From the NCBI GenBank assembly GCA_028288485.1, contig JAQBNO010000186.1, forward strand, positions 1 through 36,287: a stretch of DNA of 36,287 bases. Direction: 5' to 3'. The notes below the pieces were generated by a model, which did not search any database, was not told the DNA's origin, and saw only the letters and a list, made by a program, of their open reading frames with translations. Origin of the DNA: Segetibacter sp. (GTDB lineage Bacteria > Bacteroidota > Bacteroidia > Chitinophagales > Chitinophagaceae). A program made the translations under genes and the position numbers. Below are positions 2,121 through 36,130 of the stretch, piece after piece. The stretch's first letter is position 1, and each line of letters opens with the position of its first letter.

Positions 2121-2173
2121 TTACCAGGCTATATTTCTTTGTTGTATCGGTCGTTGCGTCGCACCCTTGTACT
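2121..2173 (+). repeat. Dispersed intergenic repeat, copy 1
   Basis: A GTTACCAGGC left box directly after the secA T-run is followed 31 bases later by the core CGTTGCGTCGCACCCTTG (from 2152) and TACT. The same arrangement recurs at 5119/5149, 18177/18208 and 29778/29808. No coding potential is seen. Confidence 0.7.
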
Positions 2174-2269
2174 CTAACGTTAAAATCGACTTGCATTACC
2201 TAGACTTCGTCAGTAGTCTTTATAGAGTTGATATAAATTTATGATATAAAAAAACTAATTTTGATAGTG

Positions 2270-2532
2270 ATGTCTTCAATACCATAGAATTATATAACCT
2301 CCTCCAGAACAAAGTCGGAGAAAAAGAAGCGCAGGACATTACAGAATATATTTCCGGGCAGGTGGGAGAAAAACTTGCAGAAAAAAAAGACGTTCTTGCA
2401 ACTAAAGAAGATATATACAGGTTACAAGTAGAAATGAAGGAACAGAAAGCAGACATTCTTAAATGGATGATTGTTCTGTTTGCGCCGTTTTATATAGGTA
2501 TGATAGTTTTTTTAATAAAGCAATTTCTATAG
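2270..2532 (+). pseudogene. Broken small coiled-coil protein with C-terminal membrane helix (DUF1640-like)
   Basis: From about 2284 to the stop at 2530-2532 the + strand encodes a typical short Bacteroidota protein: IELYNLLQNKVGEKEA, then a charged coiled-coil stretch containing KKDVLATKEDIYRLQ, then one hydrophobic C-terminal helix (about 20 residues) ending IKQFL. The frame stays open up to a TGA at 2242 but has no ATG, GTG or TTG before the coiled coil. The ATG at 2270 is in another frame and stops after five codons (MSSIP). One indel near 2283 would join it to the rest. A TAATTTTG promoter-like box lies at 2256-2263, just ahead of that ATG. The resemblance to DUF1640-type proteins is by pattern memory. 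The gene is probably dead, though a non-standard start cannot be excluded. Confidence 0.5.
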
Positions 2533-2655
2533 ACTCAATTGCTTCTTCCGCCTGGAACATTAATCAATCATTTTCCTAATAAGTAATAAATAACATTGCG
2601 GGAGGCCATATTATGCCGCATGAGAATCCTCTCATTTCCTAATTCCTAATTCAAT

Positions 2656-3327
2656 ATGCAGCTTAACCATTATATAGATCACACAATCCTTAAACCAACG
2701 ACACTTCTTTCAGACATAGAAAAAGTATGCGCCGAGGCTAAAGAGTATGGGTTTGCAGCAGTTTGCATTCCGCCCCCGTTTATTAAGATATGTAAAGAGA
2801 TTTTACAAGGAACTTCTGTTAAAGTAGCAACGGTAATTGGCTTTCCTTTTGGGTATTCTGCTGTTGAGGCAAAGCTGGCCGAAATATTGTTAGCGATGGT
2901 CGACGGCGTTGACGAATTGGATGTTGTAGTAAATATCATGGCTATAAAAAACAATGACTGGTTGTACGTTTCCAATGAGATTAATCACATAATACCCGTG
3001 GTTAAAAGCAAAGGAAAAACAATTAAGGTCATCATCGAAAGCGGCGTTTTAACGCAAGATGAATTATTAAGATGTTGCGAACTGTATGGAGCAGCAGGCA
3101 TTGATTACTTAAAAACGTCAACAGGGTATGCAGAAAAAGGGGCAACTGTTGAAGCAGTAAGAACGATGCGTAAAAACTTGCCGCCAGGTGTCCAAATAAA
3201 AGCTTCGGGGGGAATTAGAACATACGAATTTGCGAAAGAACTGGTTGATGCAGGAGCAACAAGATTAGGATGCAGTGCAAGTGTAGCCATTGTAAACCAG
3301 CAACCATTAACAGGAACAGGTTATTAA
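2656..3327 (+). CDS. deoC: Deoxyribose-phosphate aldolase
   Basis: Class I aldolase that splits 2-deoxyribose 5-phosphate into glyceraldehyde 3-phosphate and acetaldehyde in deoxynucleoside breakdown; cytoplasmic. The 223 residues match the usual length (about 215-260). Visible catalytic residues are Asp89 in DELDVVVN, the Schiff-base Lys153 in YLKTSTG, and Lys182 in IKASGGIR, which lowers the pKa of Lys153. The N-terminus IDHTILKP is characteristic and fixes the start. The gene is followed 16 bases later by the SPOR protein gene on the same strand, so the two may be co-transcribed, with no obvious functional link. No pyrimidine-nucleoside phosphorylase or other deo gene is in the window. Confidence 0.95.
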   Translation: MQLNHYIDHTILKPTTLLSDIEKVCAEAKEYGFAAVCIPPPFIKICKEILQGTSVKVATVIGFPFGYSAVEAKLAEILLAMVDGVDELDVVVNIMAIKNNDWLYVSNEINHIIPVVKSKGKTIKVIIESGVLTQDELLRCCELYGAAGIDYLKTSTGYAEKGATVEAVRTMRKNLPPGVQIKASGGIRTYEFAKELVDAGATRLGCSASVAIVNQQPLTGTGY

Positions 3328-3343
3328 ATTATTATCAGCCAAC

Positions 3344-3802
3344 ATGAGACTTTTATTTGCAGTTATTACCTTGTTTTCAGTTCCTGGCGCTTTTGCCCAG
3401 GGGCAAAATCCTCGTCCCGACACTTTTGAAACGGTTATCGTACGTAAAGACCCGAGGTTCGATGAACTGGCGGCAAAACAGGCAGAGATCAACAAACGAT
3501 CGCTTAACACTGGTCCACGGCGGGTACAAGGTTTCAGAATCCAGGCCGCTAATACACAAAACAGGGATGATGCGAATGCTGTTAAAGCCGAACTGCTTCG
3601 TCGTTTCCCTGAGGAAAAATCTTACCTGTTATACCAGGCGCCGAACTTCAGGGTCAGGATCGGTAATTTTCTGACACAGAAAGACGCTTTTCGACTTCGT
3701 AAAATGATCACCGCTTTATATCCCGACCGTGGAGTGTACATTGTGCCCGATATTGTTGAATATACGCCTCCGGCAGAAGAAGAGATCGTACCGGAGAAAT
3801 AG
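3344..3802 (+). CDS. Secreted SPOR-domain protein
   Basis: A 152-residue exported protein. Residues 1-19 form a signal peptide (MRLLFAVITLFSVPGAFAQ, cleavage probably after Ala18 of the AFA box). Residues about 60-140 form a SPOR-like fold: GFRIQAANTQNRDDANAVKA, then a spacer, then NFRVRIGNFLTQKDAFRLRK, then GVYIVPDIVEY. SPOR domains bind peptidoglycan stripped of stem peptides and often localise proteins to the division site, so a periplasmic, envelope-linked role is inferred. The link to deoC, 16 bases upstream, is probably only transcriptional. The exact role is unknown. The extra + frame at 3357-3674 is a shadow. Confidence 0.85.
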   Translation: MRLLFAVITLFSVPGAFAQGQNPRPDTFETVIVRKDPRFDELAAKQAEINKRSLNTGPRRVQGFRIQAANTQNRDDANAVKAELLRRFPEEKSYLLYQAPNFRVRIGNFLTQKDAFRLRKMITALYPDRGVYIVPDIVEYTPPAEEEIVPEK

Positions 3803-3811
3803 GTCTTTCCC

Positions 3812-3872
3812 TTATAAGTTGCAAGATGGCAGTTACAAGTTGCCGGTTCGAGGTTATAGTTGCCGGTTTTTA
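3812..3872 (+). repeat. Short degenerate tandem repeat
   Basis: Three imperfect units around AGTTGCCGG: an AGTTGCAAGATGG unit, then AGTTACAAGTTGCCGGTT, then TTATAGTTGCCGGTTTTT, between the SPOR gene and the amidohydrolase. It is not clearly related to the core repeat found elsewhere in the window. No function is assigned. Confidence 0.5.
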
Positions 3873-5110: not shown

Positions 5111-5111
5111 T

Positions 5112-5165
5112 TTTTTTGGTTACCGGCATTTATATTTTATGGCGTCATCGTTGTGTCACTCACTT
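5112..5165 (+). repeat. Dispersed intergenic repeat, copy 2
   Basis: A T-run, then GGTTACCGGC at 5118-5127, then 30 bases to the core CGTTGTGTCACTCACTT (5149-5165). It faces an inverted copy at 5279-5300, with a strong hairpin between them. Confidence 0.7.
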
Positions 5166-5193
5166 CAACTTTTTTATCATTGCTTTTCCTGGC

Positions 5194-5248
5194 AAAGAAA
5201 AAGGCTCAAAGACAAGAAAGGGAAAATTTCTTTGTGTCTTTGAGCCTT
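5194..5248 (-). terminator. Terminator between M20 gene and homoserine dehydrogenase gene
   Basis: A 14-bp perfect stem (AAGGCTCAAAGACA at 5201-5214 with its complement at 5235-5248). Read on the - strand it runs into TTTTTCTTT, so it best serves the homoserine dehydrogenase transcript. It lies inside the inverted pair of dispersed repeats. Confidence 0.75.
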
Positions 5249-5278
5249 CGATGAAATATTGCTGAAAAAAGTTCTATC

Positions 5279-5310
5279 AGTACAAGAGTGCGACGCAACG
5301 GAAGCTTAAT
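5279..5310 (-). repeat. Dispersed intergenic repeat, copy 3 (inverted)
   Basis: The complement of the core: AGTACAAGAGTGCGACGCAA at 5279-5298, followed by CGGAAGCTTAATAG. The same right flank recurs at 21059 (CAAAGTCCAATAG), 24850 (CTAAAGTTCAATTA) and, interrupted, at 29643. Confidence 0.7.
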
Positions 5311-5345
5311 AGGTATACAACTTTCTGGTCCAAAAAACCTTCTAA

Positions 5346-6602
5346 CTAAATGATTCCTGCAAGTTCAAGGCTTCTTTTTTTCAATTTAATTACATCAAAA
5401 TCTTCAATAATAGGATCTGAGGCAAGGATTAGAGAAGTCTTATTGTCTTTCCACCAGTTGTTTTGCATTAGCTCCGAAACGTGTAAAACACCCACGAGGT
5501 ATTTTCTTTGCGCTTCTGCGTGCCACTCTTCGATCCATTCGAATTTTTCCTTTGGAATATAGGCCCACTCTTCGAAACTGACGTAAACCTTTATATAAAA
5601 ATCGTTCGTTAACTCATTCGGCTTGTGGTGATATAACTTTTTGTATTCGTATTTATAATCGTATCGCAGAGCCGAAAGATCGCTTAAGACTGCCGAAGCT
5701 GTAGGAAAACTTCCGGCACCTTTTCCATAGAAAAACTGTTTGTCAGCAAAGCCGCTTTCTATTACAACCCCATTATACTGGTATTTTACAAAGGCAAGGG
5801 GATCGTCGTGTTTAATGAATTGAGGTAATACAAAAGCCGCAACCTTGCCATTTTTTAATTTTTTAGCCTGTGCAACCAATTTAATATCCACTTGCTTTTC
5901 TCTGGCAACCATTGCGTCGCTCAACTGTATATTCTGGATACCACTAAATAAAATATTATCAGGATGTTCAACAATACCGTACGCATGATTTAATAAAATG
6001 CTCCACTTGTTAACAGCATCGCAGCCCTCAACATCCAGGGCAGGATTACTTTCAGCAAAGCCGAGTTGCTGCGCCAGCATTAATGCCTGGTTGAAGTCGA
6101 GACGGTCTTCAAACATCTTTGAAAGAATGAAGTTCGTAGAACCGTTTATGATCCCTTTTATGGAATGAAGTAGGTCGTTGTCGTAATATTCCTCCAGGTT
6201 ACGAATAACAGGGATACTTGCACATGCGGCAGCTTCATAAAGAAAGGATAAGCCGGTTTCCTGTTGTAACTGGAGTATTTCGGTTAAATGATCGGCTATC
6301 ATTTTTTTACTTGCGCTTACAACGGCCTTTCCGTTACGTAATGCAGTTGATACAATTTGGAAGGCGGCATCAGGGTCGTCAATTACTTCAACAATTACAT
6401 TTATTTCTTCATCGAAGAGTAACTCTTCCTTGTTTGTTGTAAAAAGTTCTGCAGGTGCATTCCTTTTTTTGCCGGGATGTTTAATACAAACTTTTTTTAT
6501 CCGGGCCTTCAACGAGGGTGTTTGATTTAGAACTTTATATAATCCTTCTCCAACTACTCCAAAACCGAAGATCCCGATCGTAAGACTCTTATGTGCTTCC
6601 AT
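5346..6602 (-). CDS. hom: Homoserine dehydrogenase
   Basis: Reduces aspartate semialdehyde to homoserine, the branch point to threonine and methionine; cytoplasmic. The 418 residues begin with a Rossmann fold, GFGVVG at 13-18. The catalytic domain carries GIINGSTNFILSKM and ESNPALDVEGCDAVNKW. The C-terminal part (about 330-418) is the family's variable region; no clear ACT repeat can be called by eye. The start MEAHKSLTIG places the nucleotide fold at the usual distance. The gene stands alone on its strand behind a SAM-I riboswitch and attenuator, which implies repression when S-adenosylmethionine is high, so this copy is tuned mainly to methionine demand. Aspartate kinase is not fused to it. 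Confidence 0.95.
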   Translation of the reverse strand: MEAHKSLTIGIFGFGVVGEGLYKVLNQTPSLKARIKKVCIKHPGKKRNAPAELFTTNKEELLFDEEINVIVEVIDDPDAAFQIVSTALRNGKAVVSASKKMIADHLTEILQLQQETGLSFLYEAAACASIPVIRNLEEYYDNDLLHSIKGIINGSTNFILSKMFEDRLDFNQALMLAQQLGFAESNPALDVEGCDAVNKWSILLNHAYGIVEHPDNILFSGIQNIQLSDAMVAREKQVDIKLVAQAKKLKNGKVAAFVLPQFIKHDDPLAFVKYQYNGVVIESGFADKQFFYGKGAGSFPTASAVLSDLSALRYDYKYEYKKLYHHKPNELTNDFYIKVYVSFEEWAYIPKEKFEWIEEWHAEAQRKYLVGVLHVSELMQNNWWKDNKTSLILASDPIIEDFDVIKLKKRSLELAGII

Positions 6603-6703: not shown

Positions 6704-6750
6704 TATATATTTTCGTGTTTATCGGGCTAAATAAATAAAACTTACTCTGA

Positions 6751-6863
6751 CTTATCTCTCCCGATATCATCGGGATGGAGTTGGCACCTTCTTACAATTG
6801 AGTAATTTGTAAGGGTTGCCAAGGCTTCAAAGGGCCAGCACCCTCTGCCTTTCTTGATAAGAG
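6751..6863 (-). promoter_or_regulatory. SAM-I (S-box) riboswitch aptamer upstream of hom
   Basis: Read on the - strand, the element has P1 strands CTTATC and GATAAG at its two ends, then the hallmark AAGAAAGGCAGAGGG, GCTGGCCC, TTTGAAGCC and TTGGCAACCC segments. P3 is a perfect CTTACAA/TTGTAAG hairpin, GGTGCCAACTCC follows, and P4 is a perfect CCCGAT/ATCGGG hairpin. This matches the SAM-I consensus in order and content. SAM binding stabilises P1 and should let the downstream terminator form, switching hom off. Confidence 0.95.
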
Positions 6864-11606: not shown

Positions 11607-11772
11607 TTCTTTATTTGGCTATTCTTTATTTTATTTTGGTTCAAACATTTCTTCCTGATGAAACTTTTGTTGCGACGCTCCGTTCAGCTTTTACAACATT
11701 ATTGATCGTTTTTAATTAAATGGTTTACCTGTTTTACTAAACGCTTAGTCGGGCACAAGCGAATTGGGGTCT

Positions 11773-15214: not shown

Positions 15215-15542
15215 AAAGACAGCAGTTTTACAAAAATTGAGCAAGCCTCAATAGAATTACGGCAGATGAACTTACTGCCACCCTTCGGCTTTGCTCAGGG
15301 TAAAAACTGCTACGCTCATTTCAATTATTAACAAAAAGTTGAACTGAGCGTAGCAACGATGTTTCATAGCAGCAATACAGCCTGGAACAAAAAAGATCTT
15401 ATTTTTTCCTTATAAATAATGAAACAGCAGGCTTTCAACCTAATCGATTTCCATCTTCAATCCATTTTTGTAGATGATAACCTGCATTTCGTCGCAAGAT
15501 TCGGTTAAACTAAGCATTTGATTTTATTCATAGTACTTTGGT
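15215..15542 (+). other. Intergenic region with a long hairpin
   Basis: No gene is seen. At 15309-15324 and 15339-15354 there is a 16-bp inverted repeat with 15 matches (GCTACGCTCATTTCAA and TTGAACTGAGCGTAGC) around a 14-base A+T loop. There is no T-run after it, so it is not a standard terminator. A TAGTACTTTG segment (15531-15540) two bases before the kinase ATG resembles a degenerate -7 box. Confidence 0.6.
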
Positions 15543-18135: not shown

Positions 18136-18171
18136 ATGCCTATAATTTCTAACCTTGGTGTTCGAATGGCC

Positions 18172-18240
18172 TTTTTTGGTACCGGCTTTTCCACCCTGCT
18201 TTATCATCGTTGCGTCGCATTCCGTTCATCTGTCGTACTT
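18172..18240 (+). repeat. Dispersed intergenic repeat, copy 4
   Basis: A T-run, GGTACCGGC (18177-18185), then 31 bases from the box start to the core CGTTGCGTCGCAT (18208-18220). The 3' half of the core is separated: GTACTT follows only at 18235, so this copy carries about 15 extra bases in the middle. Confidence 0.6.
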
Positions 18241-18272
18241 CGATTCTACTTTTTATGTGTTTTGCTGTGCGC

Positions 18273-20873: not shown

Positions 20874-20993
20874 TTTATTGCTATATTTTACATGTGCTAT
20901 GTTAGCGTTAAGTATAATTTGACTAGAAGGATTATTATTTGACGATCTGAAATTGGTTGCGCAACTTCTGGTGTCCGAATGGATCCCATTGGT

Positions 20994-21090
20994 GATGTCA
21001 CTCACTTGTCCCGTAGCTTTTCCTGGCACCTTTTTCCAGGAGAATACTGAATCAACAAGTACAAGAGTGCGACGCAAGCAAAGTCCAATA
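20994..21090. repeat. Head-to-head pair of dispersed repeats around a hairpin (copies 5 and 6)
   Basis: A forward core-like GATGTCACTCACTTGTCC (20994-21011) and an inverted core GTACAAGAGTGCGACGCAA (21059-21077) face each other over about 50 bases. Between them is a small hairpin (TCCTGG and CCAGGA). The inner GCTTTTCCTGGCA also occurs between copies 2 and 3 near 5182. The unit overlaps the non-coding upstream extension of the TonB receptor frame. Confidence 0.65.
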
Positions 21091-21185
21091 GTAGCATTCC
21101 GCCGGCCTGAAAAAAATTTTTCTTCCTCAAACCTTAACCTCCAAAGCTTTTAAGAATCACCCTATTTTGTTTTTGATTTTTGGTT

Positions 21186-23334: not shown

Positions 23335-23718
23335 CTATTGAACAAGTTGTGCATACAGCCTGGCAAGTGTTTCCCCTGCGTTAATACACATACCGGGGTG
23401 AACGGGGGATGTTTGCACAATAGTACTGCGGGCAGCAGTGAGCCAACGAAAACGTGATGCTATAGGCAGTTTACCGATTGTTCCTCCCTCTTCGGAACCG
23501 ATACAGATTAGTTTGAAAGCATTCAGTCGTTTTTCCAGTTCTTCGGTATCTGTATCTCCTGACAGAGCAGATAACCTGCGGTTGTCGAGTTGAAATAGGG
23601 TTTGTAAAAAACGTTGACTGGAACAATAGAGAATCACCCCCACATTCAGAAATTCTTCGCGTTCTACGCGAGGAACCACGCGAATAACTGCGTACTCAAA
23701 TAAGTGCTTCTCTTGCAT
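23335..23718 (-). CDS. DUF3037 family protein
   Basis: A 127-residue cytoplasmic protein. The start at 23718 (MQEKHLFEYAVIRVVPRVER) is chosen over the longer frame from 23820 because the family begins with this motif and the extension lies inside the preceding gene. Visible: AVIRVVPRVEREEFLNVGVI and a conserved C-terminal RFRWLTAARSTIVQTSPVHP segment. The molecular function is unknown. It overlaps the HipA-like kinase gene by 23 bases; this gene pair is conserved in many bacteria, so the two products probably act together, but no activity is established. Confidence 0.88.
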   Translation of the reverse strand: MQEKHLFEYAVIRVVPRVEREEFLNVGVILYCSSQRFLQTLFQLDNRRLSALSGDTDTEELEKRLNAFKLICIGSEEGGTIGKLPIASRFRWLTAARSTIVQTSPVHPGMCINAGETLARLYAQLVQ

Positions 23719-24493: not shown

Positions 24494-24934
24494 AACTACA
24501 TCCAATTGTGTTTCTACACATTTAAAATTCCGGCCGAAAGTAGAACGTTTTTTTACTATAATCAAATTACACAGAAGTTGTTTACGCCCTTCCCGGTCGG
24601 AACTTTATTGCACGTCTGTTAAACCTTGATAAATTTCTTTTGTCTAATATTTAACACTGGCACAATTAGTGGAACAAAAGATGGTTGAAATAAATCTATT
24701 GGCACCGGCACTACTTCTTTTAATAAGGACATAGGCCGGTGCTATCTATTTGTAGCTATACCTCTTTGGGAATTCCTGTTGCTTTTCGGGAACAATTGAG
24801 ATTAAAGGCCGGTTATTGTTTCTTAAAAAAAGCAGCGAATTGGTGTAGAGCACAAGAGTGCGACGCAACTAAAGTTCAATTAAAGTATCTTCTGTTGGGT
24901 GCATAAAATAAATACTATACAAACTTTTGCTGCA
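24494..24934. other. Intergenic region with hairpin and dispersed repeat copy 7
   Basis: No gene is seen. GCACCGGC (24702-24709) and GCCGGTGC (24735-24742) form a perfect 8-bp stem with a 25-base loop. The inverted core GCACAAGAGTGCGACGCAAC occupies 24850-24869, followed by the shared right flank TAAAGTTCAATTA. The repeat lies 66 bases after the stop of the downstream-facing cytochrome gene (24935). A TACTTTCG segment near 24538 (- strand) may be the HipA-like gene's -7 box. Confidence 0.6.
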
Positions 24935-27067
24935 TCAATTCACTAAAACCTCATCAATAAATATCCACGCTTTTTCACCTTTTCCGGGATGCCATTTCGG
25001 CAACTTAGCTAAGGGTTTTGCTACTATTTTTATAAACTTAACCTCGGTTGGAGCAAATTTACAGGTAACCGGGAGGTTATCATTTGGATCGCCTTTCTTA
25101 GCTTGAATTGGAGAAACGTGACTCAGCAATTTCATCTTGTTCTTATCGATACCGCCCCAAACTTCAACATCGGTTGGAGGAAGAATAAAACCGCCTATAT
25201 CGCGAAGCATACTCAATGTTACGGAAGTTACCTGCACGGGTTGCTGGTACAAAAGCAGCCCTTCAAAATTATTGTTCCTGAAACCAAGCCATTTACCGCT
25301 TCCCCTGCCGGCATCACTCTTTTCAAGATCTGCGATAGTTCGCCCACCTTTTGCTTTGTATTTCTCGTCTGCAGGCTTTAACAATACCGCGCTGTCTGGC
25401 TTATAATTGCTGGTAAAAAAATACCGGGACGTGACGTCGCTGCTATACCAACCCGGCTTTACTGCGCGGGCCTTCAACTGGAAAATCTTCTGAACCTGCA
25501 GGTTGTTCGCGTAAACGGGCGACGAAGTGCTGTCAGGATCAGTACCATCGGTTGTATAACGAATTGTGGTGCCTTTAATGTAATGTTTTAGCTCAACCGG
25601 AACAGGCTTGTCAATGATCTTTTCTTCGTTCAACACTACTGGCGGTGTAAGTTTCATGATGATGGTATCGCCATTGTACCCGGTTTCGAAACGTATTTTA
25701 CTTTGTTTACTGATACCAGCAATAGAAGCGGCCGTAACTCCCGTATTCCAGGCAAATACTGACCGGAGTTTTGGAAATTCCTGCAGTACCGCTACCTGCT
25801 TCGGATTTACAGATGTGCCTGTAACTGATAAGCTCTTCAACAGGGGCAGCTTCTTTAACTCGCCTAAAGTGCTGCCTGTTATGGCCGAGTAATTGAGATT
25901 AAGTATTCTTACATTTTGGAAGCCTGCAATGATTTTTAAATCCTCATCCTTTACGGGCATTTTACTTAGGTTCAATTCAACAATTTGCTGTTTAACCTGG
26001 TCCAGTTCCTGTAATTGCTTGCTGTTGAAATAGGGACTATTATAAAAGTTAACTACAAGAGCGGGTGAGTTTAGAGCAACGGGGTAGATAACACGATTTG
26101 TGTTGTTCAGCTTTTGTATTTTGCTTTCGTCTGCTGCTGCAAAATCATACTTTTCCTCTGCAGATGCTTTTAATCTTTTGTACGCCAAAACACGAAGTGT
26201 ATCTGTTGGAGGAAGGTCAGTTACTTTTTTATTGATGTCCGATCCCGATTTAATCCATGCGTGGAGGATGGCGACTTCTTCATCTGAAAGTTGCGGCTTA
26301 CCCGAAGGTGGCATATGTTCTTTTTCATCTTCCGGTAAATGAATACGCTTCATGAGTAAGCCGAGATCAGCTTGTGCGGTGTCCCAAAGTTTACCATTTT
26401 TCCCCCCTTTCAATAACAGGTCGGGGGTTTCCATGATCAGCTGGCCTTTGGCCTTTTTACTGTTGTGGCACGAGATACATTTGTCCTCCAATACTGGCTG
26501 AACAAGATCGGCATAAACAACAGCGTCTTCAAATAACACGGCCCGCTTTTGTTTTCCAGGTGTTACCGGCGCCATTATAAAGTTTTCTCCATGGGTAATA
26601 TCGGCACCCAAATCACCGGCAACGGTTACTATTAATAACAGGATAAATGAGGCGGAAATATTATACCACCTGCCTGTATTTTTCTCAGAACTGATCCAAT
26701 ACCAGAACAGCAATAAAAACGCAGTTACAGAACCGGACCATTTGTGGGTTTGTAAAGAATCCTGGTCATATCCCGGCTCTTTAGATAAGAGTAAACCACA
26801 CAATGCTGTTACGACCGCGGTAGCCGATGACAACAGCAATAACTTTTCGGCAATTTCTGTATAATGACTGTTGCTGCGTGCAAACAACAACCACATAACA
26901 TACAGCACAATAATTACAATAGGAAAGTGAAGCAGTAATGGGTGCATGCGCCCACCTACCTGCAACCAGGCCGGAACAACCAGCTTATCGCTCAGCAATA
27001 ACAAAAAAGCAAGTAAACAATTAAGTGCGAAGCTAATATTAAAAGTAAGGTTCTTCCAACGGATCAT
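24935..27067 (-). CDS. Membrane-anchored planctomycete-type cytochrome c with LRR and FN3/chitobiase-like C-terminal domains
   Basis: A 710-residue multi-domain protein. Residues about 10-155 hold four to five membrane helices with conserved histidines (MHPLLLHFPI, THKW, DITHG), like DUF2231-type membrane heme proteins. A PSCyt1 heme domain follows with CISCH (Cys197, Cys200, His201) and a downstream HMPPSGKPQLSDEE segment (possible axial Met). Residues about 340-470 form leucine-rich repeats (NVRILNLNYSAITG, LPLLKSLSVTGTSV). About 490-560 is a chitobiase/FN3-like module (IRYTTDGTDPDSTSSPVYA), and the rest resembles a discoidin-like beta-sandwich. It is third in a tight operon after DUF1501 and NHL genes (9- and 24-base gaps). 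It may pass electrons at the inner membrane during extracellular substrate breakdown; this is inference. Confidence 0.85.
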   Translation of the reverse strand: MIRWKNLTFNISFALNCLLAFLLLLSDKLVVPAWLQVGGRMHPLLLHFPIVIIVLYVMWLLFARSNSHYTEIAEKLLLLSSATAVVTALCGLLLSKEPGYDQDSLQTHKWSGSVTAFLLLFWYWISSEKNTGRWYNISASFILLLIVTVAGDLGADITHGENFIMAPVTPGKQKRAVLFEDAVVYADLVQPVLEDKCISCHNSKKAKGQLIMETPDLLLKGGKNGKLWDTAQADLGLLMKRIHLPEDEKEHMPPSGKPQLSDEEVAILHAWIKSGSDINKKVTDLPPTDTLRVLAYKRLKASAEEKYDFAAADESKIQKLNNTNRVIYPVALNSPALVVNFYNSPYFNSKQLQELDQVKQQIVELNLSKMPVKDEDLKIIAGFQNVRILNLNYSAITGSTLGELKKLPLLKSLSVTGTSVNPKQVAVLQEFPKLRSVFAWNTGVTAASIAGISKQSKIRFETGYNGDTIIMKLTPPVVLNEEKIIDKPVPVELKHYIKGTTIRYTTDGTDPDSTSSPVYANNLQVQKIFQLKARAVKPGWYSSDVTSRYFFTSNYKPDSAVLLKPADEKYKAKGGRTIADLEKSDAGRGSGKWLGFRNNNFEGLLLYQQPVQVTSVTLSMLRDIGGFILPPTDVEVWGGIDKNKMKLLSHVSPIQAKKGDPNDNLPVTCKFAPTEVKFIKIVAKPLAKLPKWHPGKGEKAWIFIDEVLVN

Positions 27068-27091
27068 TTATTTCGGGGGCTTTTAAAATAA

Positions 27092-28129
27092 TCAAACTAG
27101 CGGTTCTAATTTATAGGGATATACATGACCTGAATTCCATTGAGCAACATAGATATTTTGCTCATCGTCGATGCATACATCGTGCGGGTATTGAAATACG
27201 TTGCTGGCCTGGTGCATTTCCTGCGGCTGCCCGTTTTCATAAACTGCAGGCGTACCTCCTAAATTGGAAACGATTTTGAAATTTTTATCCAATACTGTTA
27301 CCCAGCCGGAAGGTCTGTTAGGATCAGCATTGCTTTTTAGAACAGCAGCATATAGGTAGTTTCCCTGAATTACCGGCCGGCAAACCCAGGCCCCTGGTAA
27401 AGGGATTGTGTTGATATATTTACCTTCTAATGTATATCGCTTAAATGCATGCTGTTGCCTCGATGTTACAATGAGCGTTGGCCGTCCCTTATCTCTTTTG
27501 TCTATACAAATTCCGTGGGCATTCAAGAGGTTTTCTTCTTTATCTCCTCTTCCTCCAAAGTGTCTTATATACTTTCCTGAATGATCATATTGAATAATAA
27601 AATCCTTTCCATAACCATCTGCTACATACACATCGCCGTTGTCTGCTATTGCTGTTTCTGTTGGAATGTATTCTTCTACTTTTGTGTATTGCCCGGTTTC
27701 TTTGGGGTAATCTAAGGTCATCAGAACAGTTCCCTTCAGATCTGTTTTAATTACCTGGTGCCTGTTGTTATCGCAAATGAACAGCACATCCTTACCGTTC
27801 TCATTAAATAAAGTGAGGCCATGCCCCCCGGGATAATCGTGTCCCCACGTTTCAACCAGGTTACCTTTTTTATCGTAAATGATGATGTTATTTTTTACCT
27901 CATTGGTAAGAAGTATGATGCGGCCTTTTTTATCCTGCACCATTTCGTGGCAATCTTTCACCGGGTATTTGCCAAAATTCAATTGTCCCCACATTGCATT
28001 CAGCCGGTAACGCTTATTTCCCTGGCCCAGGATAGATTCATCATATTTCCCGGCTTTTAAAATAGCCGGGGCACAAAACATACCGGCGGCAGCCAGACTT
28101 GTATTTTGTAAAAATGTTCTTCTTTTCAT
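27092..28129 (-). CDS. Tat-exported NHL/6-bladed beta-propeller protein
   Basis: A 345-residue exported protein. The leader MKRRTFLQNTSLAAAGMFCA is a twin-arginine type signal (KRRTFLQ). The body contains about six repeats of the NHL/propeller kind: GRIILLTNEVKNNIIIYDKK, GNLVETWG, GHGLTLF, DNGDVYVADGYGKDFIIQYD, HSGKYIRHFGG, NAHGICIDKRDKGRPTLIV, and the final blade FQYPHDVCIDDEQNIYVAQW. Such propellers bind ligands or act as lyases (peptidyl-hydroxyglycine lyase is the closest enzyme type by pattern), but no catalytic residues can be assigned here. It lies between DUF1501 and cytochrome genes and is probably part of the same exported module. Confidence 0.85.
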   Translation of the reverse strand: MKRRTFLQNTSLAAAGMFCAPAILKAGKYDESILGQGNKRYRLNAMWGQLNFGKYPVKDCHEMVQDKKGRIILLTNEVKNNIIIYDKKGNLVETWGHDYPGGHGLTLFNENGKDVLFICDNNRHQVIKTDLKGTVLMTLDYPKETGQYTKVEEYIPTETAIADNGDVYVADGYGKDFIIQYDHSGKYIRHFGGRGDKEENLLNAHGICIDKRDKGRPTLIVTSRQQHAFKRYTLEGKYINTIPLPGAWVCRPVIQGNYLYAAVLKSNADPNRPSGWVTVLDKNFKIVSNLGGTPAVYENGQPQEMHQASNVFQYPHDVCIDDEQNIYVAQWNSGHVYPYKLEPLV

Positions 28130-28138
28130 TAAAAGTAT

Positions 28139-29587
28139 TTAAGCTATTAAGTCCTTTATTACTTTACCCGCTACGTCGGTGAGCCTGTACCTTCGGCCTA
28201 AATGTTTGAAGACCAACTTCTCATGATCGAGCCCCATTTGGTGCAGGATGGTTGCATGAAAATCATTTACATGAACAGGATTTTTTACAATGTTGTAGCC
28301 GAACTCATCTGTTTCACCATATACCATTCCGGGCTTTACGCCGCCGCCTGCCATCCAGATTGTAAAACAGCGTGGATGGTGATCCCGACCGTAATTGTCT
28401 TTGGTTAGCGTTCCCTGGCAATAGTTTGTTCTTCCAAATTCTCCACCCCAAATTACCAGTGTCTCGTCTAATAATCCACGTTGTTTCAGGTCGGTGATCA
28501 GTGCGGCAGAAGATTGGTCAACATCTTTACACTGACCCTTAATTTGCCCCGGTAAATTATCATGGGCGTCCCATCCCTGGTGGTATAGCTGCACAAAGCG
28601 AACGCCATTCTCACTTAGTTTTCTTGCTAGCAAACAGTTGGCGGCAAAGGTGCCGGGAACCAAACAGTCGGCTCCATACATCTTTATGATTGATTCAGGT
28701 TCCTTGCTCATGTCGGTAATATCCGGAACTGCGGTCTGCATCCGGTAAGCCATTTCGTACTGCTGAATTTTTGCACTGATCTCGGGGTCGCCAAAGGCAG
28801 CATAATTTTCTTCATTCAATTCGGCCAGTTTATCGAGCATTCTTCTCCTGTCGGCCTTATCCATTCCTTCAGGATTGTTCAGGTACAATACAGGGTTTTC
28901 GCCGCTGCTGAATTGTACGCCCTGGTGTAAAGAATCCAAAAAGCCGTTCGACCACAACTTCGAATAAACGCCTTGCCCGTTGCCCTTGCCTTTACTTAAT
29001 AGAACACAAAAGGCTGGGAGGTTTTTGTTCTCGCTGCCCAAACCATAACTCAGCCACGAGCCCATACTTGGCCTGTTACCCACCTGTGCACCCGTTTGAA
29101 AAAAAGTTAAAGCCGGATCATGATTGATGGCTTCGGTAAACATACTTTTTACGATACACAGGTCATCCACAACGCTTGCGGTGTAGGGCAACAATTCGCT
29201 AATTGTTGCTCTCGCTTCGCCGTACTCATTAAATTTAAAGGCGGTGCCTGCCAAAGGGAACTTCTTCTGATCAGCAGTCATGCCTGTTAATCTTTGTCCC
29301 ATACGGATAGATGCCGGCAAGTCCTTACCGTGCATATTCTGCAGCAAAGGCTTATAGTCGAACAAGTCGAGTTGTGATGGGGCGCCGTTCTGAAATAAAT
29401 AAATGATGCGTTTTGCTTTGGGGGCAAAATCAGGCAAACCGGTAATGATGGCTTCTTCCTCTTTGCCACTAAACAAATCAGGAATAAGCAACGAACCGAG
29501 GGCAACACTTCCTACACCAAGACTTAGTCTTGATAAAAATCGTCGCCGGTTCATGTTCAACCTGTGCTCTAAAAATTCTTTGCTCAT
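28139..29587 (-). CDS. DUF1501 protein, Tat-exported
   Basis: A 482-residue protein of the DUF1501 family, related to the alkaline phosphatase/sulfatase superfamily. The leader contains NRRRFLSRLSLGVGSVALGS, a twin-arginine type signal; Met12 (29554) is an equally good start to Met1. Family landmarks: IYLFQNGAPSQLDLFDYKP near the N-terminus, INHDPALTFFQTG, QLYHQGWDAHDNLPGQIKG, the WGGEFGRTNYC motif, and GRDHHPRCFTIWMAGGGVKP. DUF1501 genes are nearly always paired with PSD1 genes; here the PSD1 gene lies upstream on the same strand, 286 bases away. The activity is not experimentally established; a hydrolase role on extracellular polymers is inferred. Confidence 0.92.
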   Translation of the reverse strand: MSKEFLEHRLNMNRRRFLSRLSLGVGSVALGSLLIPDLFSGKEEEAIITGLPDFAPKAKRIIYLFQNGAPSQLDLFDYKPLLQNMHGKDLPASIRMGQRLTGMTADQKKFPLAGTAFKFNEYGEARATISELLPYTASVVDDLCIVKSMFTEAINHDPALTFFQTGAQVGNRPSMGSWLSYGLGSENKNLPAFCVLLSKGKGNGQGVYSKLWSNGFLDSLHQGVQFSSGENPVLYLNNPEGMDKADRRRMLDKLAELNEENYAAFGDPEISAKIQQYEMAYRMQTAVPDITDMSKEPESIIKMYGADCLVPGTFAANCLLARKLSENGVRFVQLYHQGWDAHDNLPGQIKGQCKDVDQSSAALITDLKQRGLLDETLVIWGGEFGRTNYCQGTLTKDNYGRDHHPRCFTIWMAGGGVKPGMVYGETDEFGYNIVKNPVHVNDFHATILHQMGLDHEKLVFKHLGRRYRLTDVAGKVIKDLIA

Positions 29588-29642
29588 GTAATTAATTTAT
29601 GAGAACTCATTCTATCATCAATGCGAAATACCTGTAACTATT

Positions 29643-29702
29643 GAAGAGTGCGACGTGCGCCCGGCTACTACCATTCCTACAGGCAACGAAAGCTTTATAG
29701 TT
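29643..29702 (-). repeat. Dispersed intergenic repeat, copy 8, interrupted
   Basis: GAAGAGTGCGAC (29643-29654) and GCAACGAAAGCTTTATAG (29683-29700) are the two parts of the inverted core and right flank that are contiguous at 5279-5310. They are separated here by 28 extra bases (29655-29682). Confidence 0.55.
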
Positions 29703-29767
29703 TCTTAGACCCGTCAAAAAAAACATCCCAAACTCCCTTTGCCACAAATAAGTGTAAAGACGTTAGC

Positions 29768-29828
29768 TGTTTTTTTTGTGACCACCTTTAGCCTTTCATG
29801 GCATCACCGTTGTGTCACTCACTTGTAC
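29768..29828 (+). repeat. Dispersed intergenic repeat, copy 9
   Basis: A run of eight T, a GTGACCACC left box (29778) and, 30 bases on, the core CGTTGTGTCACTCACTTG (29808-29825) and TAC. It lies just behind the 3' end of the PSD1 gene. Confidence 0.7.
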
Positions 29829-29873
29829 CGAAAATCAATTTTCATCGTTTCAATTCAAATAATGCAACGCTTG

Positions 29874-32198
29874 CTAGGTCTTTGTAATTGTTTCTTCCAG
29901 GTTGTATATGGTCTGAATTGTCTTCATCAAAGCAGCAGTTTTTTGGGTATCAACCTTTTCGTTAGCCGGTAATTCTCCAATGGTTATCGTTGCTTTCGCA
30001 TCGAGTTTCTTTTGCTGGTATAGTTGCAGTTCTTCGTTATAAAACCCTTCCAGGATTTTCATTTCCTTATCCGACGGCTTGCGGCAAACAATAAGGCGAA
30101 ATGCCTGGTAAATATTATTCTTCGCGTTGTCTGACTTCATTAATAAATTTTGCGACAATACTCTCGATGCCTCTAAAACAGTCGGGTCGTTCATCATTAC
30201 AAGAGCCTGCAAAGGAGTATTTGTCTTCGACCTTTTTACCTCGCACTGGTCCCGGTTGCTTGCATCAAAGATGCCCATAACGGGCGGCGGAACGGTAAGC
30301 TTTATGAAAGTGTACATGCCTCTCCGGTACAGATCTTCACCATGATCCTGTTCATATTTCGCCAGTACTCCCCGGCCAGAGGTAGCACTTTCCCATAAGC
30401 CTTTTGGCTGGTAGGGTTTCACACTAGGACCGCCGATGGCATTATTGAGCAAACCACTGCTAGAAAGAACAATATCGCGAACAAATTCTGCCGGCACCCG
30501 GTACCGCGGACCTCTTGCCAGTAGTACATTTTCAGGGTCTTCCTTCAATTTGTCAGGAGAAACTTTTGTCGATTGCCGGTAAGTGGCAGACATCATGATC
30601 GTCTTCATCAATCGTTTAATATCCCATCCGTGCTGCATAAAGTCCACTGCTAGCCAATCCAGCAATTCAGGATGAGAAGGAAGTTCGCCCTGCATGCCAA
30701 AATCACCGCTTGTTCTTACGATCCCTCGTCCAAATAATTCCTGCCACATTTGATTAACAAATACACGGGCAGTTAACGGGTTATTTTTATTAGTGGTCCA
30801 TAAAGCAAGGCCGAGGCGGTTGCGTTGCAATTTGGTTGTATCAAAAGGCATAACAGCAGGGATGGCTTGTGGCATTACCTCATCTGTCGGCTTATCATAT
30901 GCTCCTCTTCCCAGAACAAACGTTTTACGCAACGTATCTCGTTCGCCCATCACTGATACCATTAGTTTGCCCGTATCTTTTTTATTGATGTAAGTAAGAA
31001 TATTATGAACATCGCTGTCAGAGATACTTAGCAGCGGATTTTTCGCGGGCTTTGAAACAGACACATCTCCTTCATATCCAATCTCCTTCGTATTGTTGAA
31101 AAAAGCAAATAACCTGAAATAATCTTTCTGGCTGAAAGGGTCATACTTATGATCGTGACATTGGGCACATTCAATGGTTACGCCCATGATGCCTTTACCA
31201 TAAGTTTTCGTTTTATCGAGTATGTATTCAATCCGGTATTCTTCGGGTACCACTCCACCCTCTTCAGTGTACTTATGATTGCGGAAAAATGCAGTTGCGA
31301 GTATTTGTTCTTTACTTGCATTTGGCAACATGTCGCCCGCAATTTGCCAGGTGAGGAACTGGTCGTAAGAAAGGTTTTTATTGAAGGCGTGAATCAGCCA
31401 ATCGCGCCACGGCCACTGCGTCCTGATATTATCATCCTGGTAACCATAAGAATCAGAATAACGGGCGACATCCAGCCAATGCACCGCCATCTTCTCACCG
31501 TACCGGGGCGACTGTAAAAGCTCATCCACTATTTTTTCATAAGCATTTGCACTATTATCTGCAAGAAACCTATCCATCATTTCAACAGCAGGTGGGAGGC
31601 CGGTAAGGTCAAAGGAGGCTCTTTTAAGTAAGCGTTCTTTATCTGCTTCTTCATTCGGTTTAAGATCCAGTTTTTCTAATTTGTTCAACACAAAAAAGTC
31701 GATCTCGTTTTTGCACCAGTCTTTATTTTCAACGGCAGGTACTGCAGCTTTTTGAGGAGGTGTAAAGGCCCAGTGTTTTTCATATTTCGCACCTTGTTCG
31801 ATCCATTTTTTTACCAGTGCAATCTCATGTTCACTTAAAGTGCCCAGGTGCGATTCTGGCGAAGGCATCAGGTAAGATGGATCAGTAGACGTGATGCGTT
31901 TAAACAATTCAGACTCTGCCGGCTTGCCTCTTACAATTGCCCACGCACCTTTGGTTTCTTTAAGAGGCGCAAATGCAGAATCTTCTATATCGAGCCTGAA
32001 ATTCGCTTTACGCTTATTCGCATCAGGACCATGACAGGCAAAACATTTATCAGAGAGAATTGGGCGGATGTGAAAATTATAACTGATGACTTCGGGCAGC
32101 GATTCTTTACTGCTTCCTTCCTTATCACTACAGGATAAAACGAAGACTGTAACAATAGTTACCAGCGTAGATATAACCAGGATAATCCTTTTGTTCAT
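29874..32198 (-). CDS. PSD1 and planctomycete cytochrome c domain lipoprotein
   Basis: A 774-residue exported protein, taking the start at 32198: MNKRIILVISTLVTIVTVFV then LSC gives a lipoprotein signal with Cys23; the frame extends upstream to 32354 but that part is not signal-like. Domains: PSCyt1 with CFACH (Cys52, Cys55, His56) and LMPSPESH (possible axial Met111); PSCyt2 (about 162-370) with EIDFFVLNKLEKLDLKPNEE, LLKRASFDLTGLPP and a second heme motif CAQCH (Cys344, Cys347, His348); PSD1 (about 500-750) with NPLTARVFVNQMWQELFG, SHPELLDWLA and TNTPLQALVMMNDP. The family is abundant in Planctomycetes and some Bacteroidota; its substrate is unknown. It is co-oriented with DUF1501, propeller and cytochrome genes and forms with them an exported redox module. 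Confidence 0.93.
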   Translation of the reverse strand: MNKRIILVISTLVTIVTVFVLSCSDKEGSSKESLPEVISYNFHIRPILSDKCFACHGPDANKRKANFRLDIEDSAFAPLKETKGAWAIVRGKPAESELFKRITSTDPSYLMPSPESHLGTLSEHEIALVKKWIEQGAKYEKHWAFTPPQKAAVPAVENKDWCKNEIDFFVLNKLEKLDLKPNEEADKERLLKRASFDLTGLPPAVEMMDRFLADNSANAYEKIVDELLQSPRYGEKMAVHWLDVARYSDSYGYQDDNIRTQWPWRDWLIHAFNKNLSYDQFLTWQIAGDMLPNASKEQILATAFFRNHKYTEEGGVVPEEYRIEYILDKTKTYGKGIMGVTIECAQCHDHKYDPFSQKDYFRLFAFFNNTKEIGYEGDVSVSKPAKNPLLSISDSDVHNILTYINKKDTGKLMVSVMGERDTLRKTFVLGRGAYDKPTDEVMPQAIPAVMPFDTTKLQRNRLGLALWTTNKNNPLTARVFVNQMWQELFGRGIVRTSGDFGMQGELPSHPELLDWLAVDFMQHGWDIKRLMKTIMMSATYRQSTKVSPDKLKEDPENVLLARGPRYRVPAEFVRDIVLSSSGLLNNAIGGPSVKPYQPKGLWESATSGRGVLAKYEQDHGEDLYRRGMYTFIKLTVPPPVMGIFDASNRDQCEVKRSKTNTPLQALVMMNDPTVLEASRVLSQNLLMKSDNAKNNIYQAFRLIVCRKPSDKEMKILEGFYNEELQLYQQKKLDAKATITIGELPANEKVDTQKTAALMKTIQTIYNLEETITKT

Positions 32199-32501
32199 TA
32201 TGGGGGCAAATCGTGTTTTGAAGTAGGGGCGTTCCAAATACACTGAAAAAGTACGACAAAAAAGGAAAACAATTTTGACAGACAAAGAATTTGACATACA
32301 ATTTGACTTTTCACAAACAAAAATCGTTGCTAGTCTTTGTCCTGCGAGCCCCAACTTTCAAATTTGATCTTACCCGGCAAGATTAACATTGGTATCAAGC
32401 CGGATTTATGAGATTACCGGCCGTCTTGCGGGTGTCCTCATTAACCCTCAGTTTGATACGTCGTAGCTCTACAACACCTGCCCAAACAAAAATAAAGCAG
32501 C
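32199..32501. other. Intergenic region upstream of the PSD1 gene
   Basis: No gene is seen. Three copies of AATTT(T)GACA-like sequence lie at 32271, 32288 and 32300, spaced 17 and 12 bases; on the - strand they read TGTCAAATT and lie 70-110 bases before the PSD1 start, where an activator could bind. TACTTTTT (- strand, near 32253) is a one-mismatch -7 box. A weak GCCGG/CCGGC stem lies near 32399-32422, after the amylase-side region. Confidence 0.4.
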
Positions 32502-34558: not shown

Positions 34559-34574
34559 GGTTATTTCACTGCCG

Positions 34575-34582
34575 CAAATATA
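34575..34582 (-). promoter_or_regulatory. Bacteroidota -7 box of the DUF1801 gene
   Basis: On the - strand TATATTTG matches TAnnTTTG, 16 bases before the ATG. No -33 TTTG is seen at the right distance. Confidence 0.45.
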
Positions 34583-34653
34583 TTAATTTGTTGATCCCGG
34601 GTTTTTACTCATTATACTTTGAAGGGTGTTCTTATGTTTTTCGAAATTCGCTT

Positions 34654-34702
34654 GACCAACATTAGGGCGTCATTCAACATCGTTGTGTCGCTCCCTTGTA
34701 CT
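34654..34702 (+). repeat. Dispersed intergenic repeat, copy 10
   Basis: A weak left box TGACCAACATT, then GGGCGTCATT (like GGCGTCAT of copy 2), then the core CGTTGTGTCGCTCCCTTG (34681-34698) and TACT. This lies in a 371-base gap before the nuclease gene, in which nothing else is recognised except a weak promoter (TTG at 34876, TACATTG at 34899). Confidence 0.65.
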
Positions 34703-34929
34703 TCCACACAGTTATGCAGCTATTGGTGAAAGTTGGGCTTTGAGCGATTTTGGGAATGAGTGTCAGCGGTTGTTGTCTGTTTTGACTAATAACTGAAGCG
34801 TTTATCATTCAACCGAAATTTAGAATCCATAAAACATCATTAAGCCCTCGAGATTTATATCGACCGAAAAATTTATTGGCTATATTAAAATCAATTTATA
34901 CATTGTTGTTTAAAGCTAAATAACTTGTC

Positions 34930-36012
34930 ATGGACTTTAAAGATCAAATAAAGCAACTTGGAGATAGAGTTGCAAAAATGAAGGATAAGATACAAACAGA
35001 AGAAGCGACGAAAAACGCATTTATAATGCCTTTTATTCAATGCTTAGGTTATGATGTTTTCAATCCTATGGAGGTTGTACCCGAATTTATAGCCGATATT
35101 GGTATTAAAAAGGGAGAAAAGGTTGATTATGCCATTTTAAAAGAAGATGAACCGATAATACTAATTGAGTGCAAACATTGGTCTGCTGATCTTAACCCAC
35201 ACAATAGTCAACTTTTTAGATATTTTCATACAACAACAGCTAAATTTGGCATCCTCACAAATGGTATAATATTCCGTTTTTATACTGACATGGTTGAAGC
35301 AAATAAGATGGACGAAAAACCGTTCTTTGAATTTAGAATTGATGATATAAAAGATGCACACGTAGAAAAACTGAAAGAATTTCATAAGAGTTACTTTAAT
35401 CTTGAAAGCATTATCAATACTGCAAGCGAATTGAAGTACATGTCGGATTTAAGAACTTTTCTTATCAAAGAAATGAGTGAACCTTCTGATGAATTTACGA
35501 GGTTTTTTGCAAAAGCCGTTTATCAATCTACCGTTACATCAAAAGTTTTGGAACAGTTCCGAGGGCTTGTTAAAAGATCTTTTCAGCAATATATCAATGA
35601 TGCAATAAGTGAAAGACTAAAATCAGCATTAGCGACTGACGAGCAAAAAGCCGAAGAAATTGCAAAAGAAGAATTAGTTACAACTGGACCTGAAGAGAAC
35701 AAGGTACAAACAACTGCAGAAGAGATGGAAGGTTTCTATATCATAAGAGCAATTCTTTGTGCTAAAGTGAATGTTTCAAGAATTATACATCGCGATCAGC
35801 AAAGTTATTTCGGTATCCTTTTAGATAACAATAACCGGAAACCAATTTCCCGATTGAACTACAATGGTAGAAAAAAGTACGTTTCTTTCTTTGACAATGG
35901 CAAAGAAGAAAAAGTGGAAATTGAAAATAATAGCCAGTTGTATGAATATTCGTCGCGTTTTGTAAAAGTAGTAGACCAGTATGAGAAGAAAGGTGCAATT
36001 GTAGAAAGCTAA
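34930..36012 (+). CDS. Solitary type I restriction HsdR-N-like nuclease
   Basis: A 360-residue protein with the N-terminal nuclease domain of type I restriction R subunits but no helicase domains. PD-(D/E)XK core: Glu25 in QTEEATKNAF, Asp67 in KVDYAIL, Glu80-x-Lys82 in IILIECKHW, and the type I QxxxY motif Gln94/Tyr98 in SQLFRYF. All catalytic residues are intact. Residues about 150-290 are helical and charged; the C-terminal 80 residues (IIRAILCAKVNVSRIIHRDQ) form a small conserved-looking domain of unknown role. No hsdM or hsdS gene adjoins. The gene is visibly richer in A+T than its neighbours, suggesting transfer. It may be a stand-alone defence or DNA-repair nuclease; this is inference. 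Confidence 0.85.
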   Translation: MDFKDQIKQLGDRVAKMKDKIQTEEATKNAFIMPFIQCLGYDVFNPMEVVPEFIADIGIKKGEKVDYAILKEDEPIILIECKHWSADLNPHNSQLFRYFHTTTAKFGILTNGIIFRFYTDMVEANKMDEKPFFEFRIDDIKDAHVEKLKEFHKSYFNLESIINTASELKYMSDLRTFLIKEMSEPSDEFTRFFAKAVYQSTVTSKVLEQFRGLVKRSFQQYINDAISERLKSALATDEQKAEEIAKEELVTTGPEENKVQTTAEEMEGFYIIRAILCAKVNVSRIIHRDQQSYFGILLDNNNRKPISRLNYNGRKKYVSFFDNGKEEKVEIENNSQLYEYSSRFVKVVDQYEKKGAIVES

Positions 36013-36069
36013 TTATAGGATGATCTTTCTATTTTCCGGTATGAGCTATCCACCTCTTAGCTTTATTTT

Positions 36070-36130
36070 AGCGGTACCGGCATTACAGACTCCCAAAGAA
36101 TCCACAGGCCGACGTGAGTGACACAACGAT
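36070..36130 (-). repeat. Dispersed intergenic repeat, copy 11
   Basis: GCGGTACCGGC (36070-36080) is the left box in forward orientation, but the core behind it is inverted: GTGAGTGACACAACGAT (36114-36130). This copy therefore combines a forward box with a reversed core. Confidence 0.6.

What the first reader, a model, noticed from the sequence alone, without database searches (positions are those of the whole stretch)
2121..36130. Family of about eleven short intergenic repeats with a fixed architecture
The core CGTTGYGTCRCWCNCTTG plus TACT, or its complement, occurs at 2152, 5149, 5279, 18208, 20994, 21059, 24850, 29643, 29808, 34681 and 36114, always outside genes. Forward copies are preceded at 27-31 bases by a GGTTACCGGC-like box, and several boxes follow a run of six to eight T. 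A weaker relative may lie at 11669 (TTGCGACGCTCCGTTCA). The density, about one per 3 kb, and the strict intergenic placement suggest a REP-like or MITE-like family that is mobilised or maintained by the host. It does not match a repeat family I can name.
Basis: seen in the sequence. Interest (0 to 1): 0.72.

Follow-up and report, generated by a model that had tools for sequence, protein, structure and literature searches.

The report
Paired intergenic repeats of Chitinophagaceae
This soil bacterium and many of its relatives carry up to about two thousand copies of a short DNA element between their genes, often as facing pairs and rarely in the same direction close together, and it looks like a long-resident mobile element that does not depend on the transposase usually tied to such repeats.

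Summary
The repeats are real. Nine of the 11 listed positions match the core (12 window hits, 0.25 expected); the other two are variants, and I add two more. The window's genome holds 1,090 copies against 2 for the reversed pattern. The ungapped ~80-bp frame is T-run, G..ACCGGC-like box, spacer, core CGTTGYGTCRCWCNCTTGTAC, short tail. It recurs in other genera; 78 of 147 Chitinophagaceae genomes match, with up to 2,194 copies.

It is not a REP in the strict sense: no fold signal, and the 2,194-copy genome has no Y1 transposase hit. Organisation is REPIN-like: convergent pairs, T-runs outside. Some copies share non-core sequence but not flanks. At eight of nine conserved intergenic sites Segetibacter aerophilus also has a copy, while hairpin inserts differ at one core point.

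Unexplained: same-direction pairs within 3 kb are depleted about ten-fold, inverted pairs are near chance in total; gene orientation does not explain it.

Verdict: long-resident, non-autonomous, paired mobile repeat not dependent on RAYT; mobiliser unknown.

The parts
2114..2194 (+). element copy, short form, core 2152-2172
5111..5191 (+). element copy, short form, core 5149-5169; convergent with the next
5258..5338 (-). element copy, short form, core 5280-5300
11630..11710 (+). variant copy, GCGACGCTC core at 11668-11688
15300..15396 (-). variant copy, GCTACGCTC core at 15338-15358 with T-run, followed by an inverted arm at 15308-15329
18170..18250 (+). variant copy, GCGTCGCATTC core at 18208-18228
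20991..21011 (+). right half of a degenerate copy (long-form type: GTCCGAATGGATCCC..GGTGAT before GTCACTCACTTG); convergent with the next
21037..21117 (-). element copy, short form, core 21059-21079
24828..24908 (-). element copy, short form, core 24850-24870
29643..29726 (-). element copy whose core is split by a ~28-nt insert after CGTTGC
29770..29850 (+). element copy, short form, core 29808-29828; with the previous one it fills a 286-bp gap that is 14 bp in Segetibacter aerophilus
34643..34723 (+). element copy, short form without T-run, core 34681-34701; faces the next across one gene
36086..36166 (-). element copy, short form, core 36108-36128

Best explanation
A family of small non-autonomous mobile elements found in Chitinophagaceae. 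The half-element is about 60-80 bp, asymmetric and not palindromic: T-run, box, spacer, CGTTG...CTTGTAC core, short tail. The fullest form is an inverted pair with cores facing inward and T-runs outside, sharing or flanking a short centre; single halves would be derivatives. A trans-acting factor that is not a Y1/RAYT transposase, and that I could not identify, copied the elements into intergenic DNA. Copies then persist vertically, gain or lose hairpin inserts at one point of the core, and same-direction copies close together are lost, most simply by deletion between direct repeats. Shown: architecture, copy number, intergenic placement, relatedness of some copies with unrelated flanks, pairing, presence/absence at orthologous sites, abundance without Y1_Tnp. 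Inferred: the transposition step, the mobiliser, that single halves derive from pairs, and the deletion explanation.
For: 1,090 copies vs 2 reversed-pattern controls. Fixed ungapped frame, same in G009, G013, G033, G034 and G158. Best non-core match >=70% in 17 of 187 own copies, 4 of 16 in G013, 3 of 47 in G034, 6 of 23 in G033, never in column shuffles, and flanks upstream of the T-run unrelated in the pairs printed. Convergent 26, divergent 6, direct 1 at 60-400 bp; 12 of 13 close neighbours convergent in G158. Copy number 0-2,194 in the family and 0 vs 345, 1 vs 136, 0 vs 77 within genera. Presence/absence at orthologous gaps. Abundance without Y1_Tnp in G158, G033, G006.
Against: No autonomous partner, no target duplication and no identical copies found: no pair reaches 90% outside the core, and none of 117 S. 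aerophilus copies reaches 70%. Eight of nine conserved sites hold a copy in both species, so movement is slow or old. Several high-copy genomes do have intact Y1_Tnp genes (G162, G085, G097, G090, G095, G126). The loss of direct pairs depends little on core identity, which plain homology-driven deletion would not predict.
Confidence: 0.6

Rival explanations
1. Host-maintained functional DNA site: an asymmetric, multi-part binding site for a nucleoid, boundary or transcription-related protein, kept between genes in alternating orientation.
For: Orthologous copies with the same orientation at 14 gene sides vs 3.6 in shuffles; orthologous pairs keep the core (mean identity 0.85) while left module (0.43), tail (0.42) and flanks (0.30-0.33) diverge; orientation rule spans core variants.
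Against: Copy number swings from 0 to hundreds within a genus; 27 gene sides have a copy only here and 8 only in S. aerophilus; inserts of about 20-86 nt inside the core are common; the core identity is biased because partners are found by their core.
Confidence: 0.2
2. A REP/REPIN family moved by RAYT (Y1 transposase).
For: Convergent pairs, extragenic location, high copy number; Y1_Tnp genes are common in the family (44 of 59 genomes) and present in several high-copy genomes, e.g. G126 with 345 copies has four hits and G012 with none has one weak hit.
Against: No palindrome or fold; G158 2,194 copies and no Y1_Tnp hit; G033 299 and G006 154 copies and no hit; G007 6 copies and seven hits; the intact own Y1_Tnp lies near other palindromes.
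Confidence: 0.07
3. Transcription terminator or processed 3'-UTR RNA element.
For: Between co-directional genes 146 copies point with the genes and 102 against; the copy at 2152 follows a terminator-like hairpin and T-run (by eye).
Against: Stems before the T-run 6.4% vs 4.0% in control, no fold signal on either strand; no Rfam family in the window other than a SAM riboswitch; orientation to genes nearly free.
Confidence: 0.06
4. DNA uptake sequence amplified by biased transformation.
For: Hundreds to thousands of copies with a fixed core and conserved positions in related species.
Against: Frame of ~80 bp is far longer than known uptake motifs (recalled), copies share non-core sequence by descent, inserts split the core, and copies are almost absent from genes.
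Confidence: 0.05

Closest known systems
REPINs (inverted pairs of REP sequences replicated by RAYT)
   Same: Extragenic, high copy number, inverted pairs with single remnants, persistence over long times (PMC8049555, passages).
   Different: The half-element is not palindromic and does not fold; abundant where no Y1_Tnp is found.
CGTC-tagged REPs
   Same: No dedicated transposase found; head-to-tail dimers negligible; the letters CGTC stand in one core subtype, and in a long form follow a hairpin (PMC3733652, passages and section 7; own copies).
   Different: Those are 20-40 bp palindromes; here the frame is ~80 bp and the short form has no stem.
MITEs
   Same: Small, non-coding, dispersed, inverted-pair units.
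   Different: No target duplication or parent transposase found; most copies in the window's genome are single.
DNA uptake sequences
   Same: Very many copies of a conserved core; hundreds to thousands per genome (PMC2346458, abstract start in the listing).
   Different: Much longer, almost excluded from genes, with a modular insert in the core.

Membership tests
REP / REPIN | palindromic (hairpin) unit | tested here: not met
   short form: no fold z-score on either strand in 187 copies; long forms carry hairpin inserts
REP / REPIN | inverted pairs, direct pairs rare | tested here: met
   26 convergent, 6 divergent, 1 direct at 60-400 bp in five genomes; 12 of 13 in G158
REP / REPIN | associated RAYT (Y1) gene flanked by the repeat | tested here: not met
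   own intact Y1_Tnp locus has no copy; G158, G033, G006 have copies and no Y1_Tnp hit; flanks of Y1 genes in other genomes not examined
REP / REPIN | extragenic placement | tested here: met
   79 of 87 intergenic
CGTC-tagged REP | palindrome with an unpaired CGTC at one end | tested here: inconclusive
   CGTC is inside one core subtype but the short form has no palindrome; at C11:83737 a hairpin insert is followed by (C)GTC
MITE | terminal inverted repeats | tested here: inconclusive
   paired units have inverted halves, most copies in the window's genome are single halves
MITE | target-site duplication and related transposase | tested here: inconclusive
   737 joined-flank queries gave one usable empty site, too diverged to show a duplication; only Y1_Tnp was searched as transposase family
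DNA uptake sequence | biased uptake of DNA carrying the motif | not testable with these tools
   needs transformation assays
Structured RNA / terminator | conserved stem or terminator hairpin | tested here: not met
   no Rfam match at these positions; the only covarying distant pair is positions 5-9 of the core

The most novel reading that the evidence does not exclude
The elements are live, orientation-sensitive interaction sites: a dedicated recombinase or DNA-pairing protein acts between copies up to about 3 kb apart, removing the DNA between direct copies and leaving or flipping it between inverted ones, so the orientation pattern along the chromosome is written by this activity across all core variants. 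That would be a genome-wide site system of a kind not described in the papers I searched.
Probability: 0.1. Interest if true: 0.88.

Novelty: new variant of a known kind. Interest (0 to 1): 0.62.

Why it matters
A very abundant repeat family of a widespread bacterial family, for which my four literature searches returned no description in the rows listed. It separates REPIN-like behaviour (paired, intergenic, long-lived) from the palindrome and the RAYT transposase usually taken to explain it. The loss of same-direction pairs within about 3 kb is a measurable signature that can be tested in other Chitinophagaceae genomes and bears on how repeats shape gene order.

Tried and rejected
RAYT mobilisation. 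Terminator or folded RNA. Flanking palindromic target: no excess of inverted arms around 187 copies. Gene-cassette reading of '-> gene <-' units: enclosed genes include ordinary ones that read as ffh- and gcvH-like (by eye, not scanned). Gene orientation as the cause of the orientation pattern. Survival of direct pairs only around essential genes: the genes between the 25 surviving direct pairs do not look essential as a set (by eye). Replichore polarity: a listing for G158 showed only + copies, but fetched DNA has 24 + and 18 -, so the listing was cut by strand. Preference for mixed-subtype pairs: 32 mixed and 20 alike among convergent pairs under 320 bp, about 49% mixed expected from the subtype counts; not clear. 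Eight viral contigs hold the core; not studied.

Caveats. Gene calls are my own ORF and codon scoring. One search includes overlapping named loci; searches use non-overlapping stretches. In one search inverted pairs match chance in total but not in every bin: at 400-1000 bp the window's genome has 1 where 11.4 are expected. In one search the 0.4-1 kb bin (2 direct of 7) is not below the permutations. In G158 4 of 19 neighbour pairs at 400-3000 bp are direct. The nine shared sites come from two overlapping runs, and several were settled by reading sequences by eye; at one of the eight (C13, 18225) a second copy is present only here. In one search sides of one gap can count twice. For T-runs of variant cores the figures quoted are from the window's genome; in G009 and G034 they are lower (11 of 18 and 7 of 12 for GCGACGCTC).
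Full report
OBSERVATION. The motif search in the window gives 12 hits with up to three mismatches against 0.25 expected. The hits at 5910 and 30917 are three-mismatch matches inside genes, and 17330 is doubtful. In the whole genome (6,375,045 bases, 220 contigs) the 21-nt core with up to three mismatches occurs 545 times on each strand, against 2 and 0 for the reversed pattern. Contigs C1 and C2 of G009 have the lengths of Segetibacter aerophilus NBRC 106135 records, and G009 is in the window's genus, so the host is a Segetibacter or close relative.

ARCHITECTURE. In 1,097,698 fetched bases (17% of the genome) there are 187 copies. Aligned without gaps on the core (positions 0-20), conservation runs from -38 to about +40: T-run at -38 to -31, box G...CCGGC at -30 to -22, a variable stretch, mostly CAT at -3 to -1, the core, then a weakly conserved tail. 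Positions 5 and 9 are C-G (100) or T-A (84) with 3 exceptions of 187, giving two main subtypes, CGTTGCGTCGCAC and CGTTGTGTCACTC. No segment tested folds better than shuffled sequence on either strand, and stems before the T-run are hardly commoner than in control DNA, 6.4% vs 4.0%. The same frame appears in G009, G013, G033, G034 and G158. Other right halves share the left frame: in the window's genome 53 of 57, 51 of 57 and 25 of 26 matches to GCGACGCTC, GCTACGCTC and GCCACGCTC cores (overlapping pattern sets, one mismatch) have a T-run at the right distance, against 11% background; in G009 and G034 the GCGACGCTC figures are 11 of 18 and 7 of 12.

A VARIABLE POINT. Some copies carry extra DNA at one point, between CGTTG and GTCRC: about 19-31 nt, often hairpin-like, or 47-86 nt that include CCCTGAGC...GAAGG repeats. 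The two halves of the core stay recognisable on either side. Four orthologous sites have a long form in the window's species and a short form in S. aerophilus (by eye).

PLACEMENT. In 424 kb 79 of 87 hits (<=4 mm) were intergenic, 6 in ORF calls and 2 at edges, with 69-77% of the DNA called coding. Between co-directional genes 146 copies (all variants, two genomes) point with the genes and 102 against.

DISTRIBUTION. 33 of 59 genomes searched (own included) match at three mismatches. In the window's genus all nine other genomes match (6 to 1,382 copies). Of 23 genomes from other families of the order, three have one match each, similar to the reversed control. Across 147 family genomes of at least 90% completeness (own included, two mismatches) 78 match, in 57 of 92 genera. 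Copy number reaches 2,194 (G158), 1,875 (G162) and 1,430 (G085), and differs within genera: G012 0 and G126 345; G013 136 and G127 1; G015 0 and G129 77. Eight viral contigs hold a match.

COPYING BY DESCENT. Over 60 positions outside the core, the best match of a copy reaches 70% or more in 17 of 187 own copies, 4 of 16 in G013, 3 of 47 in G034, 6 of 23 in G033 and 0 of 117 in G009; column-shuffled sets never reach it. The maximum is 83%. In the pairs printed, the sequence upstream of the T-run is unrelated, which marks a left boundary. No pair reaches 90%, so no very recent copying is seen in the stretches sampled.

ORTHOLOGOUS SITES. I compared 1.10 Mb of the window's genome with 1.04 Mb of S. 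aerophilus. Nine conserved intergenic gaps carry an element in at least one species (18 gaps, 38, overlapping sets). Eight carry one in both at a matching place, one of them decayed by a one-base loss, and one of them with a second copy only here; one gap, the window's own 29588-29873, is 286 bp here and 14 bp in S. aerophilus. With single-side orthology (189 gene sides), 14 sides have same-orientation copies in both against 3.6 in shuffles, 4 have opposite ones against 2.6, 27 have a copy only here and 8 only in S. aerophilus; many of the last two lack conserved synteny on the other side. Where absent, the best match is mostly at background level. A second empty site is seen between Segetibacter RYN_279 and S. 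aerophilus, whose gap is about 80 bp shorter. In seven orthologous pairs the core averages 0.85 identity, the left module 0.43, the tail 0.42 and flanks 0.30-0.33; random same-subtype pairs give 0.88, 0.38, 0.32 and 0.27. The core figure is biased because partners are found by their core. The picture is long vertical persistence with slow gain and loss.

PAIRS AND ORIENTATION. At 60-400 bp, 26 of 33 pairs are convergent, 6 divergent and 1 direct (five genomes, 390 copies). In 80 kb of G158, 12 of 13 neighbour pairs under 400 bp are convergent. The T-runs lie outside. At 45-bp spacing the two tails overlap, as if one centre were shared (by eye). This resembles a REPIN. More surprising is the longer range: direct pairs are 10 of 108 below 3 kb, 21 of 54 at 3-4 kb, 114 of 220 at 4-8 kb and 214 of 399 at 8-16 kb. 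Against random intergenic placement, the window's genome has 5 direct pairs below 3 kb where 52.5 are expected and 50 inverted where 52.5 are expected; S. aerophilus has 2 against 28.6, and 28 against 27.7. In single bins inverted pairs deviate too (1 against 11.4 at 400-1000 bp in the window's genome). With all core variants, direct pairs in these two genomes are 25 of 164 below 3 kb, against about 81 when orientations are permuted within gene contexts (300 permutations; below all of them in three of four bins). Variants exclude each other too: 23 of 119 different-variant and 12 of 91 same-variant pairs are direct (five genomes).

MECHANISM. Relatedness of copies, pairing and copy-number swings point to a non-autonomous mobile element. 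Dependence on RAYT is unlikely: G158 has 2,194 copies and no Y1_Tnp hit; G033 (299 copies) and G006 (154) have no hit; G007 has 6 copies and seven hits. Against this, several high-copy genomes do have intact Y1_Tnp genes, and in one genus the 345-copy species has four hits and the zero-copy species one weak hit. The intact Y1_Tnp of this genome lies in a 2,040-base locus without the element, beside different palindromes. The mobiliser remains unknown; I searched for no other transposase family. Missing direct pairs could result from deletion between direct repeats: in E. coli and B. subtilis RecA-independent recombination falls sharply with distance, though not in Deinococcus (PMC4627823, passages read). 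The weak dependence on core identity and the near-complete loss even across whole genes leave room for a dedicated activity.

KNOWN RELATIVES. REPINs share pairing, extragenic location and persistence (PMC8049555, passages). CGTC-tagged REPs share the lack of a dedicated transposase, the rarity of head-to-tail dimers and, in one subtype, the CGTC letters (PMC3733652, passages and section 7). Both are defined by palindromes, which the short form lacks. A search for core letters returned 39 papers; the 10 listed match only through a 12-mer and are unrelated biomedical papers, and the other 29 were not seen. Three further searches gave no description of such a family in the rows listed. I file it as working like a REPIN, not as a REP.

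Noticed in passing
window 6749-6863 (-): SAM riboswitch (RF00162, 87.5 bits) upstream of a homoserine dehydrogenase gene at 5346-6602 (-).
   Followed up: no
window 24935-32354 (-): Cluster with PSCyt1/DUF2231, NHL-repeat, DUF1501 and DUF1549/DUF1553 proteins, families named after planctomycete cytochromes.
   Followed up: no
window 34930-36012 (+): Single gene with a type I restriction HSDR_N domain (360 aa), enclosed by two facing element copies.
   Followed up: partly
window 23335-24565 (-): DUF3037 and HipA-like kinase genes side by side.
   Followed up: no
window 5190-5255: Between the facing copies 5149 and 5280 lies another inverted repeat, AAGGCTCAAAGACA ... TGTCTTTGAGCCTT.
   Followed up: no
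L051 1953-2040: Palindromes GTTGGGCTCTGCCCAAC and GTTGAGCTCTGCTCAAC directly after the intact Y1 transposase gene, likely that gene's own repeat family.
   Followed up: no
C54:97904-98213 of the window's genome (L046-L070): A facing pair of copies encloses what reads like a tRNA gene (by eye, not checked with a tRNA finder).
   Followed up: no
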